Source: a virus. From it: DNA of 23,022 bases. Location: positions 1-23,022 of IMG/VR virus record IMGVR_UViG_3300024999_000415; one strand, written 5' to 3'. The notes below the pieces were generated by a model. That model was not told where the DNA came from, did no database searches, and saw nothing but the letters and a program-made list of their open reading frames with translations. Below are positions 48-8,152 of the stretch, one piece after another (position 1 is the stretch's first letter; each line of letters starts with the position of its first letter). A program made the position numbers and the translations under genes.

Positions 48-84
48 AGAGAGGGTATTATATTTACCCTCTCTTAAAACACAA
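48..84 (-). promoter_or_regulatory. Leftward promoter overlapped by a 10-bp palindrome (possible operator)
   Basis: On the minus strand TTGTGT (79-84) and TATAAT (57-62) are separated by 16 nt, facing the leftward gene at position 18. A perfect inverted repeat, AGAGAGGGTA (48-57) and TACCCTCTCT (65-74), encloses the -10 box. That arrangement fits an operator better than a terminator, because no real T tract follows on the plus strand. A weak terminator for a gene arriving from the left cannot be excluded. Confidence 0.5.
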
Positions 85-155: not shown

Positions 156-184
156 TTGAACAAAAACCCTAAATATGCTATAAT
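156..184 (+). promoter_or_regulatory. Sigma-A type promoter of the zinc-ribbon/ART operon
   Basis: TTGAAC (156-161), a 17-nt spacer and TATAAT (179-184), preceded by TG as in an extended -10. Transcription would start near 191 and give a leader of about 28 nt before the ATG at 219. Confidence 0.8.
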
Positions 185-218
185 ATAATCATCATTGTCG
201 AAATGGAGGTTATCACAA

Positions 219-1082
219 ATGACACAAGATACAATTAAGCAAACACTAAAAAATACAAACATCATAAACCCAACACACTCAATCAGAAAGAAACTTCGTC
301 TCTGTTTTAAATGTTGTGAACCTCTATCACCTGAAGAAACAAAAATACACTGTGAAAAATGCAGATTAATTATAAAACAAGATTATCAAGCAAAAAAAGA
401 AAACTGTAAACAATTAAGAATCTGTTTTATTTGTGGCACAAGATTAGATTCAATAGAATATTTTAAGTGCCATAAATGCTATGAAAAAGCTCGCATGAAT
501 CAAAAACCATATAATGATAAAATAGATCGAAAATCAAAAGCACCCAAACTATGTCTAGGTGGTTGTGGAGTCCTTGTAGATCAATTCGGTAAATATTGTC
601 CTGAATGTAAAAAAGAAAGTATTAAAAGAAATACTAAAAATTCATATGATAAAAGTTTCTATAAGAACAATAATCAACAATCAAAACCAATTACCGAACG
701 TAAAAGTTATCAAGGAAAAACTCTAACCGAAAAGGAAAAGCAAATCAGCACAAAACAATTTTTTCTCCAATTAGAAATTGATCAAACTATAAAAACTGGT
801 AATTATATGGGATTCAATATTAAAAGAGTAAGAAAGTTAAAGAAAATATCTACATCTAACTTTATTAATAAAACTGGTCTTAAAATTGATGAAATATACA
901 ATATTGAGAAAGGTAAAAAGGAAATCAATCTACAACAATTTAAGGAGATTGTCATTACTCTAGGAGTTGATTCATCTATGTTTGAAATCGAAGCAGATAA
1001 ATTATGTAAAAAGTTATATTCTAAATTTAATACTGAAATTGTTAATATTGATTTTATAATCAAAGGAGAATACAGAATATGA
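219..1082 (+). CDS. Three-zinc-knuckle protein with C-terminal XRE-like HTH
   Basis: 287 aa. The start is the ATG at 219, not the upstream TTG at 195, because a GGAGGT ribosome binding site (205-210) lies 8 nt before it. The N-terminal half carries three Cys4 clusters: C29xxC32 with C45xxC48, C69xxC72 with C84xxC87, and C112xxxC116 with C127xxC130, each resembling a zinc ribbon. A lysine-rich linker follows. Residues about 198-258 read like an XRE/Cro-type helix-turn-helix (RVRKLKKISTSNF, then a TGLKIDEIYNIEKGKK stretch). This suggests a DNA- or RNA-binding regulator. The stop overlaps the start of the next gene as ATGA, so the two are translationally coupled, and the pair has its own promoter. 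It may autoregulate the operon or act as partner to the ART-like protein. The exact family is not recognised; the zinc and HTH calls come from motif reading. Confidence 0.75.
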   Translation: MTQDTIKQTLKNTNIINPTHSIRKKLRLCFKCCEPLSPEETKIHCEKCRLIIKQDYQAKKENCKQLRICFICGTRLDSIEYFKCHKCYEKARMNQKPYNDKIDRKSKAPKLCLGGCGVLVDQFGKYCPECKKESIKRNTKNSYDKSFYKNNNQQSKPITERKSYQGKTLTEKEKQISTKQFFLQLEIDQTIKTGNYMGFNIKRVRKLKKISTSNFINKTGLKIDEIYNIEKGKKEINLQQFKEIVITLGVDSSMFEIEADKLCKKLYSKFNTEIVNIDFIIKGEYRI

Positions 1083-1894
1083 AAACAAATAATATGAACA
1101 ATCTATTCCAATTATCTCATCAAAATATTAGCAAAGATAAACTAATCCCTTTAATTCTTTTTCATGATAATAAATTTAGACAAAAAATCATAAAAGAAAC
1201 TAAATATGATATTCCAACATATGCACTCATTGAAGAAGGCATAAAATATCTTAATAAACCAATAATTAATTTCTACTTTTCTGACAATCCATTTAGTCCA
1301 TTCATTTATCTGAACAATCATACAATGATGGATATCTCTATATGGAGCATGGAATTCTTCAAAGAAATACAAATGAAAAGTAGAATTGAAAAAGTTGAAA
1401 CTCATTTAGACGATCTTGTTAAAACCAAACAATACGAAAGATTATTCTTCATGATAGACAAAAGAATCGCTCTAGACTTCTATATTCAATCATTCAATGA
1501 TATACCTGATGACCAGAAATATGATTGCTTTGAGGATATCTACAGTCGTTCTGAATATGGTTTCTCAAGTCTTAACAAAAAGTTCTTTCTAAACATTTTC
1601 AAATACAAATCTAAAGAAAACCTAAGTGAAAATATTAAACCAGATGCTAATGGTCTAGTTAAAATATATCGAGGTCAAAATACCAAATCCACACATTATA
1701 AAAAAGCATTCTCATGGACAATTGATAAAGAAAAAGCAATATTCTTTGCTACAAGATTTGATGAATATGGTGGAGAATTATATGAAGCAATGGTTAAATT
1801 TGAAGATATTCTTGCTTATATTGATCGTAGAGGGGAGTCAGAAGTTATTATTGATCCTGTTTGTTTAATTGATGTTAAGAAGATAAGATTATAA
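1079..1894 (+). CDS. ADP-ribosyltransferase-like protein (R-S-E class)
   Basis: 271 aa. The C-terminal third carries the three signature elements of arginine-type ADP-ribosyltransferase folds in order: an IYRG strand with Arg198, a SWT strand (Ser212-Trp-Thr214) followed by KEKAIFFATRF, and a GESEV loop giving an E-x-E pair (Glu253, Glu255). Proteins with this layout transfer ADP-ribose from NAD+ to protein or other targets, either as toxins or as phage host-takeover enzymes. Residues 1-180 are not recognised and could specify the target. No signal peptide is visible, so it is probably intracellular. It is co-transcribed and translationally coupled (ATGA) with the zinc-ribbon/HTH protein, an arrangement reminiscent of toxin-antitoxin or toxin-regulator pairs. 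The ART assignment is inference from motifs; NAD-binding activity is untested. Confidence 0.65.
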   Translation: MKTNNMNNLFQLSHQNISKDKLIPLILFHDNKFRQKIIKETKYDIPTYALIEEGIKYLNKPIINFYFSDNPFSPFIYLNNHTMMDISIWSMEFFKEIQMKSRIEKVETHLDDLVKTKQYERLFFMIDKRIALDFYIQSFNDIPDDQKYDCFEDIYSRSEYGFSSLNKKFFLNIFKYKSKENLSENIKPDANGLVKIYRGQNTKSTHYKKAFSWTIDKEKAIFFATRFDEYGGELYEAMVKFEDILAYIDRRGESEVIIDPVCLIDVKKIRL

Positions 1895-1920
1895 TAAATA
1901 TATTGATTAAATTATATTTA

Positions 1921-1956
1921 GAACTCCTAACCACATCAGCAGTTAGGAGTTCTTTA
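1921..1956. terminator. Terminator between convergent operons
   Basis: A perfect 11-bp stem, GAACTCCTAAC (1921-1931) and GTTAGGAGTTC (1942-1952), is followed by TTTATT on the plus strand. It lies between the stops of the rightward ART operon and the leftward operon, so it may serve both. The arm sequence recurs in the 3' ends of two homing endonuclease genes (see findings). Confidence 0.75.
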
Positions 1957-1967
1957 TTACAACTATA

Positions 1968-2480
1968 TCAACCTTTTCTACTAACCTCTAATTCCATAAC
2001 CTTCAAATCTCCAAATTCAATAAGATACTCATATAAACTCATTCCAAAACCTTGAGTATTTACATATATCTCATATTCATTTTTAAAAGCAATATCGTGA
2101 ATCATATTAGCATAGCTCTTTATGCTTATTGGTTCTTGATATCTTCTAGAATCAAAGGTAACTAATTTCTTGTCAACATATATTAATACTTTATTACTAT
2201 CTCTACCTTCAGTCCAAATGCAATCAACATACATTGGTTCAGTGCATTTAATTTGTGGTTTTAATCTTGTACTTTGACTAATTTTATGAATCATATCTAG
2301 AATATCCTTTTTAGTTTTTACATCTTCCTGCGGAGTCGTTATAAATTGATATTCTAATTCAAACATTGATCTTATCATAAATCCCATATCACACGGAATA
2401 AGATAAATATCGTTCCATAGTTTGCATTTTTCCTCAATATATTCTTCTTTTGTTTGTTGTTTATATAATACATCTCTCAT
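1968..2480 (-). CDS. Unrecognised phage protein
   Basis: 170 aa from the ATG at 2480. The longer TTG frame from 2498 contains the AGAAGGA ribosome binding site itself, so it is not used. The product is acidic to neutral and mixed alpha/beta in appearance, with no transmembrane segment, no signal peptide and no motif I recognise. It is the last gene of the long leftward run and sits just before the convergent terminator. The 40-nt gap to the upstream gene suggests the same transcript. Confidence 0.75.
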   Translation of the reverse strand: MRDVLYKQQTKEEYIEEKCKLWNDIYLIPCDMGFMIRSMFELEYQFITTPQEDVKTKKDILDMIHKISQSTRLKPQIKCTEPMYVDCIWTEGRDSNKVLIYVDKKLVTFDSRRYQEPISIKSYANMIHDIAFKNEYEIYVNTQGFGMSLYEYLIEFGDLKVMELEVSRKG

Positions 2481-2520
2481 TATTAATCCTTCTTTCAAAT
2501 TATATTTATTAATTAATTCC

Positions 2521-3396
2521 CTAAATATTCTTTACGCTCTTATACAACTGTCCAATCATTTCTAATAAATTCTTTCTTGTTAAAACAGTATCTTTAGTTT
2601 TAGCAATATCATCATATTCCTCTTGGAGTCCAATTAATGAATCCATTAAGAATTTATTAGCAGGAGTAACTTGAAAGGATTGATATAATTCATATTTCCT
2701 ATTAATATCTTCCTCTGAATCTTTCTCTTTATTATTCTCTTCTGGCCTACTCATGATTGCATGTTCTTCATACCATTTCTTTTTATCACAATTCTCTTTA
2801 ATTTTATCCATCATACCTTGATTAAACATCCCAACGTCTATCCCAGTTTTATAATCTTCATTTAATATATTAGTTGTGGAATTACCATATAATTTTTCCA
2901 AATGAAAGTCATAATTATTAGTTGTAACAAATGAAATTGTTCTATTTCCAGTAATGTTTTTTAATGATGTCGGCAATATTCCATCAAAAAATATGTAATC
3001 AAAATTCATTACATTATGGTCAACAGGAATCGTATGCCAATTAACAATATTTATAACTTTAAAATCATGAAAGACAATTCTCATATCTTCTTTAGTCATG
3101 TGAATATCCTTAATTGAGTTCTTTAAATCGTTATTCATTTTAAGTATTTCATCTAATTTATTCTTTAAGGAATTTAACCAATCATGTTTTCCTCTAAGAT
3201 ATAAAACATTTTCTGGTCTATTTTTAAGTATTGTTGCTAAAATAGTATATGTTGCTCCCAACCCTCTAGACCAATTACAGATTAACGTATCTCTTCCTGA
3301 TTTAATTTGAATTGCTTTTTGATAATCAAACATTGTAATATTAATATCTTCCCATTTTACTCCGTTATTTAAATTATAATTATTAAACTTTGTCAT
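2521..3396 (-). CDS. Degenerate P-loop ATPase-like protein
   Basis: 291 aa; the start has an AGAAGGAATTAAAAA leader. Residues 18-52 follow the layout of the N-terminal ATPase of terminase large subunits and superfamily 2 helicases: a DYQKAI Q-motif-like stretch, then a hydrophobic strand ending in RGLGATYT (44-51) where a Walker A would be. The invariant Lys of GKT/GKS is replaced by Ala. A hydrophobic strand YIFFDG (134-139) occupies the Walker B position but lacks the Glu after Asp. The protein stops at 291 aa with no nuclease domain and an acidic K/E-rich segment near 215-235. It therefore looks like a non-hydrolysing relative or a re-purposed structural copy. This is inferred from motif layout only; it could be an unrelated fold. 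Confidence 0.55.
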   Translation of the reverse strand: MTKFNNYNLNNGVKWEDINITMFDYQKAIQIKSGRDTLICNWSRGLGATYTILATILKNRPENVLYLRGKHDWLNSLKNKLDEILKMNNDLKNSIKDIHMTKEDMRIVFHDFKVINIVNWHTIPVDHNVMNFDYIFFDGILPTSLKNITGNRTISFVTTNNYDFHLEKLYGNSTTNILNEDYKTGIDVGMFNQGMMDKIKENCDKKKWYEEHAIMSRPEENNKEKDSEEDINRKYELYQSFQVTPANKFLMDSLIGLQEEYDDIAKTKDTVLTRKNLLEMIGQLYKSVKNI

Positions 3397-3443
3397 TTTT
3401 TAATTCCTTCTTTCTCTCACATTTCACACAATTTTTTGTTTTT

Positions 3444-3473
3444 GAGAAGACATATATTTTCATATGTCTTCTC
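3444..3473. repeat. 12-bp inverted repeat in a 147-nt intergenic gap
   Basis: GAGAAGACATAT (3444-3455) pairs perfectly with ATATGTCTTCTC (3462-3473) around a 6-nt loop. On the minus strand, where the flanking genes lie, it is followed by A-rich rather than T-rich sequence, so it is not a standard terminator for them. It may be an RNA processing or stabilising hairpin. The rest of the gap 3397-3543 shows nothing recognisable. Confidence 0.55.
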
Positions 3474-3543
3474 CATGTTTGTTCTTTTAATGACCAGAAT
3501 TAACTGTTCTTTATATAGCTATCCAAAGAGTATTGATTTGCTA

Positions 3544-4191
3544 TTATAAAGTTATATAAAGGCGATTACTTGGTTCATTGTTAGAAATATAAACTCCATG
3601 CAAATATTTAAATATATCTGGATATTTCTCACTCAAAATTTTTGCTTCAAAAACTGAATCATCTGTGATTTCAACATAATATGTTTGTTGTTTTGAATCT
3701 AAAGACTTTAATTTCTCATTTATTTTGTCTTCTTCATATTCTATTGCTTTATCTAACTTTTTTAATTGTTCCTCCTGCTTATCTCTAGGTCTATCCCTCT
3801 CAATTCTATTTATTTTATCAGCTAATTTCACATAAGAATCACTTAAACATCTAAACTGATTGTAATCACTTTTACATTTTTTCATTAATATGTGTAAATC
3901 TTTAGACTCAATAATCAATCTATTTAAAAATTCTTCCGCAAATTCTGAATCATACTTAAATAAACTATAATCGAACATTTTATTTAAGACATCATAGCTC
4001 TTCAGGAGTGTATCTACCATGCCTCTATATGGTCTAAAATCTTTAACATAATTAACGAAATCTGAAGATGCAGAGTCTATTCCTGCTAATTTTTGCTCTT
4101 CATTTCTAATATCCTTCATCTCTTCTTTATTTTTTATAACCCATAATTCATCTAAAATATACTCAATATGGTTTTTAATTGTATTAATCAT
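3544..4191 (-). CDS. Unrecognised coiled-coil-rich protein
   Basis: 215 aa, starting at an ATG with AGAAGGAG about 10 nt upstream; the ribosome binding site lies within the last codons of the preceding gene, whose stop is 4 nt before this start. The product is highly charged and helical, with a likely coiled coil near residues 115-170 (repeated K/E/L heptad-like stretches such as EEQLKKLDKAIEYEEDKINEKL). No catalytic motif, membrane segment or signal peptide is seen. The close spacing to the 4196-4738 gene, also helical, suggests they work together, possibly as a complex. Confidence 0.75.
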   Translation of the reverse strand: MINTIKNHIEYILDELWVIKNKEEMKDIRNEEQKLAGIDSASSDFVNYVKDFRPYRGMVDTLLKSYDVLNKMFDYSLFKYDSEFAEEFLNRLIIESKDLHILMKKCKSDYNQFRCLSDSYVKLADKINRIERDRPRDKQEEQLKKLDKAIEYEEDKINEKLKSLDSKQQTYYVEITDDSVFEAKILSEKYPDIFKYLHGVYISNNEPSNRLYITL

Positions 4192-6628: not shown

Positions 6629-8152
6629 TTACTTTGCAGTTAAGAGTTGTGGATTTTCTTTTATGTATTCATCATAGTATTGCCATCTGAGTGGTTCATT
6701 TGTAATTGGATGTTTACCTGCTGATCTCTGAGGGGTTTTACAACTTCTACCTATATTTCCTCTACATATATTATATTTCCCTTCAGCTTCAATTTGAGAA
6801 TCAAATATTTCACCAGTTGTTAAACATATTATTTTCTTTTTATTGGAATCTTGAGCCTTTTTAATTCGTTCTAATTTACCTTTTTTAATATCATAATCGC
6901 ACCATCCCAATTCTGACCCTTGTTTGAGATATTTAGACATTGTACTTGAATGTAATTTTAATATATTGCCTATTTTAATTGTAGAGCGAATTCCTTTGTT
7001 CCATAAATTACATACTATTTTAACAAGATTTGAACATGCATATTCATGACATTTCAGCCAATCTATATCTATATCTTTAAAATTAAGTAATTGTGGTAAC
7101 TTTGATTGTAACATATTATTTCTTATCCATTCCATTTCAGACTTGTCACAATTAATTCTTATAATTTCAATATTATGCTCTGCACACAACCTATCTTTTT
7201 CATCATCAATAAATTTACTTTCTTCTTTAGTTTGTCCACTCAAACTATTGTCTCTATTATGCCAACCTCCATCCATTTCAACACCATATTCTTTACCATT
7301 TATCGAAAAGTAAAAGTCTATAGATCCTTTTCGTATTTTACCTTTAAATTCATATATTAACCAATCATAATATTTTTCTGCTTCAAAATCTTCAATTGTT
7401 TTTAGATCCTTAATTTGATCTAAAAAATTAAATCCAAATTTATTTGGATAACTCATTCCATCCCCACATTTATTACATGTAAAACCAAGTCTATTTTTAT
7501 TTGTTAAATTTCTAATAATCATAGGTTTAATATAGCCACATTCTGGACATTTGCACTTTACAGATTCTCCTGAATCTTTCGAATGTTTATATGCATCATT
7601 TATATCTACAAAGTAGCTTATATACTCTGAGGCAGTTGTCGCTACATCGTTAATACCTTTAATTATAATTTTATTACGACATACTGGACAACCTTGTTTT
7701 TTTATCAAGTTTCCTTCTGATGTTTTATTAATGCAACCACAACCTAGGCAGATATATTCGTAACCTTTGTATTTATGATCATCTCCTTTATAAAATTTAC
7801 CACGTATTTGTTTTAGTATCCTAAGAAAATTATTATACTTTACTTCTACTAATTGGTCAACTTCATATTTAAACGAACTTTCATAATAATTTGGTTTAAC
7901 TTTTAAAATTTTACCAAATTTACATTTTAATAAATTTCCGGTTAATATTTCGAATGGTTCATTTTTATATGTAATATTTAAAGTTAATACATTATTTGTA
8001 TTATTTTCATAGCAATCGATTATTTTGATATATCCTTCTACTTCTTCATAGATAAATCTAATATCAAGACCAATACATTCTTTCCACTTTATACCCCTAT
8101 AACTACTTCCACTTTCCCATCTTGGCAAATCATCTAAAAATACTTCTCTCAA
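6629..8152 (-). CDS. Vsr/EDxHD-like homing endonuclease with zinc ribbons
   Basis: 507 aa, beginning at a TTG. A GGAGG site lies 12 nt upstream inside a hairpin. The N-terminus (YEEVEGYIKIIDC, LTLNITYKN) matches the beta-rich module common in phage homing endonucleases. Zinc-ribbon Cys pairs follow: C135xxC138, C155xxC158, C202xxC205 and C226xxC229. The nuclease core is PD-(D/E)XK/Vsr-like: Asp279 in SIDF, then VEMDGGWH with Glu292, Asp294 and His298, as in I-Bth0305I-type enzymes. Residues about 380-415 look like an HTH. Residues 438-495 form a NUMOD1-type DNA-binding module (IICLTTGEIFDSQIEAE, ending RWQYYDEY). It is likely an active free-standing homing endonuclease. The terminal NPQLLTAK echoes the neighbouring GIY-YIG gene. 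Confidence 0.85.
   Translation of the reverse strand: MREVFLDDLPRWESGSSYRGIKWKECIGLDIRFIYEEVEGYIKIIDCYENNTNNVLTLNITYKNEPFEILTGNLLKCKFGKILKVKPNYYESSFKYEVDQLVEVKYNNFLRILKQIRGKFYKGDDHKYKGYEYICLGCGCINKTSEGNLIKKQGCPVCRNKIIIKGINDVATTASEYISYFVDINDAYKHSKDSGESVKCKCPECGYIKPMIIRNLTNKNRLGFTCNKCGDGMSYPNKFGFNFLDQIKDLKTIEDFEAEKYYDWLIYEFKGKIRKGSIDFYFSINGKEYGVEMDGGWHNRDNSLSGQTKEESKFIDDEKDRLCAEHNIEIIRINCDKSEMEWIRNNMLQSKLPQLLNFKDIDIDWLKCHEYACSNLVKIVCNLWNKGIRSTIKIGNILKLHSSTMSKYLKQGSELGWCDYDIKKGKLERIKKAQDSNKKKIICLTTGEIFDSQIEAEGKYNICRGNIGRSCKTPQRSAGKHPITNEPLRWQYYDEYIKENPQLLTAK

What the first reader, a model, noticed from the sequence alone, without database searches (positions are those of the whole stretch)
219..1894. 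Operon of a three-zinc-ribbon/HTH protein with an ADP-ribosyltransferase-like protein
Seen: a private promoter, an ATGA overlap, a terminator, three Cys4 clusters plus HTH in the first gene, and R/SxT/ExE motifs in the second. Known: ART-fold proteins paired with HTH proteins occur as toxin-antitoxin modules (e.g. RES-Xre), and phages use ARTs for host takeover. Inference: this is either a toxin-regulator or defence pair, or an early takeover module. A Cys4x3-HTH partner for an ART is not one I recognise.
Basis: partly seen in the sequence, partly recalled or inferred. Interest (0 to 1): 0.65.

Follow-up and report, generated by a model that had tools for sequence, protein, structure and literature searches.

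The report
Phage ADP-ribosyltransferase with zinc-ribbon regulator
A group of uncultured phages carries a small, exchangeable, self-contained gene cassette in which a probable DNA-binding zinc-ribbon protein sits in front of an enzyme of an unrecognised phage ADP-ribosyltransferase family; more than a hundred sequenced phages carry relatives of that enzyme, nearly all labelled 'hypothetical', so the finding gives many blank genes a testable function.

Summary
In detail: a two-gene operon (219-1894, + strand) with a conserved promoter, ATGA overlap and terminator. Gene 1 encodes three Cys4 clusters plus a Cro/Xre-type HTH. Gene 2 encodes an R-S-E-type ART with R198, S212, E253 and E255 invariant or nearly so across its family.

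The ART belongs to phrog_4776 (no assigned function, no Pfam match). Its profile aligns with T4 ModA/ModB in register on all three motifs, scoring above 100 of 100 permuted controls. AlphaFold gives a confident ART-like core. Foldseek's top PDB hits are mostly ARTs, but with weak E-values.

The pairing is real but narrow. It occurs in three variants of one uncultured phage group. In all other ART loci examined the ART has no such partner, and the zinc-ribbon/HTH protein also occurs without the ART. The exact promoter pattern occurs once per phage contig, always before the zinc-ribbon/HTH gene. A related contig has a homing-endonuclease gene at this site instead.

Best reading: a moron-like cassette in which the HTH protein controls its own promoter and the ART modifies host (or rival phage) macromolecules. 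An obligate toxin-antitoxin pair is disfavoured. No activity or target has been shown.

The parts
156..184 (+). promoter: TTGAAC, 17-nt spacer, TATAAT with an extended TG before the -10 box
   Evidence: the pattern TTTGAACA-N12-14-TGNTATAAT occurs exactly once in each of 7 contigs, always upstream of this gene; control 0; aligned
205..209 (+). ribosome-binding site GGAGG, 9 nt before ATG 219
   Evidence: sequence
219..1082 (+). zinc-ribbon/HTH protein, 287 aa, probable regulator
   Evidence: pairwise dN/dS about 0.27-0.32; homologues L002-L007
303..362 (+). Cys4 cluster 1 (residues 29-48, CxxC-x12-CxxC)
423..479 (+). Cys4 cluster 2 (residues 69-87)
552..608 (+). Cys4 cluster 3 (residues 112-130)
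816..974 (+). Cro/Xre-type helix-turn-helix (residues 200-252)
   Evidence: weak Pfam match in the window; family search places it at 819-974; over the cut-off in homologue L006
1062..1068 (+). ribosome-binding site AAAGGAG of the ART gene
   Evidence: sequence
1079..1894 (+). R-S-E-type ADP-ribosyltransferase-like protein, 271 aa, phrog_4776 family
   Evidence: dN/dS about 0.16 in the core, about 0.3 over the whole gene
1079..1636 (+). N-terminal mainly helical domain (residues 1-186), partly low-confidence in the model
   Evidence: conserved over the full length in Bacillus/Paenibacillus plasmid homologues
1637..1891 (+). ART core (residues 187-271): R198 (1670-1672), S212 (1712-1714), E253 (1835-1837), E255 (1841-1843)
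1920..1953 (+). intrinsic terminator hairpin closing the operon
   Evidence: -16.8 kcal/mol, z = -7.0; equivalent hairpins in L002, L003 and L006

Best explanation
This is a moron-like phage cassette carrying its own promoter and terminator on the strand opposite its neighbours. Gene 1, the zinc-ribbon/HTH protein, binds the unique promoter and controls its own transcription and that of its cargo (inferred). Gene 2 is a mono-ADP-ribosyltransferase of the R-S-E clade that uses NAD+ to modify a macromolecule of the host or of a competing phage, reprogramming or blocking it (chemistry inferred from motifs, fold and similarity to T4 Mod; target unknown). Shown here: the operon anatomy, the one-per-contig conserved promoter, conservation of the catalytic residues, purifying selection, and cargo exchange at the site. 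Not shown: DNA binding, enzyme activity, target, or the stage of expression.
For: Catalytic motifs in order YRG / SWT-xDxxxAxxFAxR / RGExE; E253 and E255 invariant and R198 and S212 at least 90% conserved across 21 divergent homologues, all four invariant in 10 full-length homologues. The predicted core (most blocks pLDDT 90 or more) has the ART strand order, with R198 on a first strand, SWT on the second and ExE opening a late strand. Profile comparison with T4 ModA/ModB aligns R, S and E in register; score 25.8 against a null mean of 12.5 and maximum of 19.0, 0 of 100 permutations as high. ModB R73, in the equivalent YRG motif, is known to be catalytic (PMC10468400). Top PDB fold matches are Rhs ART toxins (9gco probability 0.96, 8s2n 0.85), with further ARTs lower. 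The promoter pattern is unique per contig and tied to gene 1. The cassette is opposite in strand to both neighbours in L002, L003 and L006, and to its downstream neighbours in the window. Cargo varies: ART alone in the window, ART plus a small zinc-ribbon gene in L002 and L006, the small gene alone in L003. In L060 an HNH gene occupies the site, and homology to the window resumes at 1923, inside the terminator.
Against: Foldseek E-values against PDB are no better than 0.077. hhalign probability with Mod is low (7-16%) despite the null test. No conserved palindromic operator was found in the promoter region, so autoregulation is only inferred. The zinc-ribbon/HTH model is poor (pLDDT 49). Temperate lifestyle is unproven: an integrase-family gene is present in G005 but not detected in its near relative G006. 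The L002 copy of the ART has a frame break.
Confidence: 0.55

Rival explanations
1. Type II toxin-antitoxin or abortive-infection pair: the ART is a growth-stopping toxin, the zinc-ribbon/HTH protein is its antitoxin and autorepressor, and the module stabilises the element or defends against other phages.
For: Regulator-first order with ATGA overlap; Xre-type HTH with weak similarity to HipB-like antitoxin and control-protein models; own promoter and terminator; rare ART toxin-antitoxin pairs are known in phages (PMC9503650).
Against: ART homologues lack this partner in every other locus examined. The regulator occurs without the ART in L003/L004 and in a second copy in L002. No known toxin-binding antitoxin domain was found. 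No PADLOC model matches the ART.
Confidence: 0.2
2. Early host-takeover module, as T4 ModA/ModB: the ART modifies host RNA polymerase or ribosomes soon after infection, and the zinc-ribbon/HTH protein is an early transcription switch.
For: Mod-like motif spacing and profile similarity. The Lysinibacillus phage homologue sits among many small hypothetical genes. The Catdawg homologue gp78 was detected by mass spectrometry in an unpurified lysate, with 2-4 peptides (PMC4351075).
Against: The promoter pattern is single-copy and private rather than a shared early-promoter class. The module is absent or exchanged in close relatives, so it is not core takeover machinery.
Confidence: 0.2
3. The two genes are neighbours by chance in a hypervariable site: an ART effector next to an unrelated DNA-binding gene of selfish or homing type.
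For: The site also hosts an HNH gene in L060; the phage group carries many homing-type genes; partners are exchangeable.
Against: ATGA overlap in the window; adjacency kept between window and L006 although the ARTs are only 68% identical; both genes under purifying selection; the promoter stays attached to gene 1 and not to other genes.
Confidence: 0.05

Closest known systems
phrog_4776 (unnamed phage protein family, function unknown)
   Same: all 21 aligned homologues match it, and the window protein matches at E = 1.2e-17
   Different: the family has no assigned function; the zinc-ribbon/HTH partner was found only in this phage group
T4 ModA / ModB (R-S-ExE phage ARTs)
   Same: YRG, S-x-S/T-xDxxxAxxFA and ExE in the same order and register; profile score above all 100 permuted controls
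   Different: low hhalign probability; different N-terminal region; T4 modA and modB lie next to each other with no HTH regulator annotated in the stretch examined
TreX / TreTu Rhs ART toxins
   Same: best PDB fold matches
   Different: E-value 0.077 at best; those are C-terminal toxin domains of Rhs proteins with dedicated immunity proteins, whereas this is a stand-alone phage protein
RES-Xre toxin-antitoxin modules
   Same: Xre-type HTH gene upstream of an ART-superfamily gene
   Different: no RES domain match, no Xre toxin-binding domain match, R-S-E rather than RES motif, no obligate pairing
phage morons / lysogenic accessory cassettes
   Same: own promoter and terminator, opposite strand to neighbours, exchangeable at a fixed site
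   Different: expression from a prophage not shown

Membership tests
R-S-E clade ADP-ribosyltransferases | catalytic Arg in a YRG-type motif on the first core strand | tested here: met
   R198 on strand 193-200; at least 90% conserved in 21 homologues, invariant in 10 full-length homologues
R-S-E clade ADP-ribosyltransferases | S-x-S/T motif on the second strand | tested here: met
   S212-W-T214 on strand 212-214
R-S-E clade ADP-ribosyltransferases | ExE motif | tested here: met
   E253 and E255 invariant in 21 and in 10 homologues
R-S-E clade ADP-ribosyltransferases | ART fold | tested here: inconclusive
   confident core with ART element order; PDB top hits mostly ARTs but E no better than 0.077
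R-S-E clade ADP-ribosyltransferases | NAD+-dependent ADP-ribosylation | not testable with these tools
   needs an enzyme assay
T4 Mod family | sequence-profile homology to ModA/ModB | tested here: inconclusive
   0 of 100 permuted profiles reach the score, motifs in register, but probability only 7-16%
RES-Xre toxin-antitoxin | RES domain in the toxin | tested here: not met
   no Pfam match at E <= 1 for gene 2; R-S-E motif instead
RES-Xre toxin-antitoxin | Xre antitoxin with HTH plus toxin-binding domain | tested here: not met
   HTH present but no toxin-binding domain match
Type II toxin-antitoxin pair (general) | conserved co-occurrence of both genes | tested here: not met
   each gene occurs without the other
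Type II toxin-antitoxin pair (general) | toxicity neutralised by the partner | not testable with these tools
   needs expression experiments
DarTG | DarT ART with a macro-domain DarG | tested here: not met
   no DarT or macro match in either gene
phage moron | own promoter and terminator, opposite orientation, absent from near relatives | tested here: met
   for the window itself only the downstream neighbours are visible
phage moron | expression from a prophage | not testable with these tools
   no transcriptome; integrase-family gene only in G005

The most novel reading that the evidence does not exclude
A new regulatory architecture in phages: a zinc-ribbon/HTH protein with a private promoter forms a cargo-exchange cassette whose cargo is an unrecognised ART family, with the zinc ribbons acting as a sensor or target adaptor for the ART.
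Probability: 0.2. Interest if true: 0.75.

Novelty: new variant of a known kind. Interest (0 to 1): 0.5.

Why it matters
The ART family appears to be unrecognised: 108 isolated-phage records, mainly well-studied mycobacteriophages of the Faith1 and Catdawg/Firecracker groups, carry it, almost all listed as hypothetical. Giving it an R-S-E ART assignment with named catalytic residues makes the function testable in an existing laboratory system (M. smegmatis mc2 155). Phage ARTs are known routes to host reprogramming and to unexpected chemistry such as T4 ModB RNAylation. The cassette also offers a case in which the regulator and promoter stay fixed while the effector gene changes.

Tried and rejected
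Single-protein scan of viral contigs with the ART found nothing; the family alignment found 29 loci. The first genome-contig query failed because A1 was too divergent; a narrower alignment gave 3 loci. PDB sequence searches gave no relevant match. Pfam, NCBIfam and PADLOC do not recognise the ART. AlphaFold of the zinc-ribbon/HTH protein was too poor to use. Inverted repeats as an operator: none conserved among the four promoters. Rfam and tRNA scans of the window: nothing. RES-Xre and DarTG were considered and rejected by domain content. Virion packaging as for T4 Alt was considered: Catdawg gp78 appears in an unpurified lysate, and the gene at the equivalent position in Corndog is not in the list of virion proteins (PMC4351075; Corndog equivalence inferred from gene order, not checked), so packaging is disfavoured but not excluded here. 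A toxicity screen paper (PMC7474061) does not mention the Corndog, Faith1, Crossroads, Catdawg or Firecracker phages.

Full report
OBSERVATION. The window is a 23-kb IMG/VR virus fragment, GC 28%. ORFs 219-1082 and 1079-1894 lie on the + strand with an ATGA overlap. The terminator hairpin 1920-1953 folds at -16.8 kcal/mol, z = -7.0, and an equivalent hairpin ends the cassette in L002, L003 and L006. The genes downstream from 1968 to 4191 are on the - strand; what lies upstream of the cassette is cut off by the end of the contig.

GENE 1. It has Cys4 clusters at residues 29-48, 69-87 and 112-130. Homologues keep two or three clusters and one or two HTH domains. Pfam sees the window's HTH only weakly (HTH_19 E = 0.007), but the two-HTH homologue in L006 passes the HTH_3 cut-off. 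Relatives at 87%, 58% and 65% (over the HTH) identity were found only in contigs of the IMG series 33000250xx and 3300025309. A second, profile-based scan found the same contigs and no others, and isolated phages gave no match. The structure prediction was poor (mean pLDDT 49).

PROMOTER. Sigma-70-like matches are no more frequent than chance in this AT-rich DNA, so the claim rests on conservation. TTTGAACA-N12-14-TGNTATAAT is present once, and only once, in each of seven contigs from 20 to 230 kb. Each time it lies directly before gene 1, with no control matches (alignment). The second copy of gene 1 in L002 (11162-11874) lacks this exact promoter, although a related AT-rich box precedes it. 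No palindromic operator is shared by the four promoters.

GENE 2. It has no Pfam match, but matches phrog_4776, of unknown function (E = 1.2e-17). All 21 members of a diverse alignment match that family. In those 21, E253 and E255 are invariant and R198 and S212 at least 90% conserved. All four are invariant in ten full-length homologues from phages, bacterial genomes and Bacillus/Paenibacillus plasmids. The AlphaFold model has mean pLDDT 75, with most of the core from residue 190 at 90 or more. Its elements are E193-200 (R198), E212-214 (SWT), H217-225, E233-240, E244-250, E253-258 (ExE) and E264-269. Against PDB the best matches are the Rhs ARTs TreX and TreTu, with other ARTs lower, but none has E below 0.001. 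To test the link to a known phage ART family I aligned T4 ModA, ModB and three relatives. hhalign scored 25.8, against a mean of 12.5 and maximum of 19.0 in 100 column-permuted controls, and placed YRG, the S motif and ExE in register. Mutating ModB R73 (made together with G74A) abolishes activity (PMC10468400). I take the ART assignment as about 0.9 likely. Placement within the Mod family is not established.

SELECTION. Pairwise dN/dS is about 0.16 in the ART core (window versus L006), about 0.3 over the whole gene, and about 0.27-0.32 for gene 1. Both genes are therefore maintained. The L002 ART is split by a frame break around residue 73, with the catalytic part still open. Whether that is real or a sequencing error cannot be told; intact copies exist in the window and in L005-L007.

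PAIRING. The two genes are adjacent in the window, L002 and L005-L007. The last three records carry the same cassette sequence (equal scores and identities), so there are three distinct variants. The ART is missing in L003/L004, where a small CxxC/CxxC gene follows gene 1 directly; the same small gene follows the ART in L002 and L006. A profile search of every fetched locus found gene 1 near no ART outside this group: phages (L008-L011), other viral contigs (L016-L040), genomes (L041-L043) and plasmids (L069-L073). Neither gene is therefore an obligate partner of the other.

MOBILITY. In L060, a relative sharing the neighbouring gene at 91.6% DNA identity, homology to the window runs from 1923, inside the terminator, rightwards. 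On the other side of that point L060 has an HNH-type gene where the cassette would be, followed by sequence related to the DNA upstream of the L002 cassette. The HNH assignment is my reading of the sequence, not a family search. This is the pattern of a cassette exchanged at a fixed site.

MECHANISM. Most likely gene 1 binds its own promoter and sets the expression of whatever cargo follows, and the ART, when made, ADP-ribosylates a host or rival-phage macromolecule. The anatomy, conservation and exchange are shown; regulation, activity and target are inferred. Toxin-antitoxin (0.2) and early takeover (0.2) remain open. Against toxin-antitoxin stands the lack of co-occurrence; against core takeover stand the private promoter and the exchange of the cassette in relatives.

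KNOWN CONTEXT. A survey of viral NAD+/ADP-ribose systems lists T4Alt/VIP2 and Mod as the frequent R-S-E viral families and reports few ART toxin-antitoxin pairs in phages (PMC9503650). A word search of that paper for zinc-ribbon partners and novel ARTs found none; its supplements were not read. The family is carried by 108 isolated-phage records, mostly mycobacteriophages annotated 'hypothetical protein'. One of them, Catdawg gp78, was detected in an unpurified lysate with 2-4 peptides (PMC4351075).

VERDICT. New variant of a known kind, interest 0.5.

Noticed in passing
L072:3504-5024 (Paenibacillus polymyxa plasmid pSC2): The ART-family domain is joined to a C-terminal HD-type phosphohydrolase-like region (Pfam HD E = 0.002, below the curated cut-off). 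The annotation 'HD domain-containing protein' of some plasmid homologues may derive from such fusions.
   Followed up: partly
plasmids L069-L073: The ART family occurs on large plasmids of Bacillus, Paenibacillus, Aneurinibacillus and others (33 places in 27 records), without the zinc-ribbon/HTH partner in the five examined.
   Followed up: partly
L002 11162-11874: A second zinc-ribbon/HTH copy, split over two reading frames, with no ART after it.
   Followed up: partly
L003:6848-7087, L002:7746-7994, L006:7674-7922: A small CxxC/CxxC protein in the same cassette, weakly like MqsA-type or FmdB zinc ribbons; absent from the window.
   Followed up: partly
L060 4523-5668: An HNH/NUMOD-like gene (by eye) occupies the site where the cassette sits in relatives.
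   Followed up: partly
L008 4695-5495 (Lysinibacillus phage LysYB1): The ART homologue is annotated 'mRNA catabolic process', which nothing seen here supports.
   Followed up: no
G005:206665-207132 versus G006: A phage-integrase-family gene is found in the 227-kb contig but not in the related 230-kb contig; lifestyle unclear.
   Followed up: no
window 48-74: A strong hairpin (10 pairs) just before the promoter, called as a terminator on the - strand; it may insulate the cassette.
   Followed up: no
window 6629-8152 (-): A long zinc-ribbon protein whose C-terminal repeat recurs in several places of related phages, reminiscent of homing-type proteins.
   Followed up: partly
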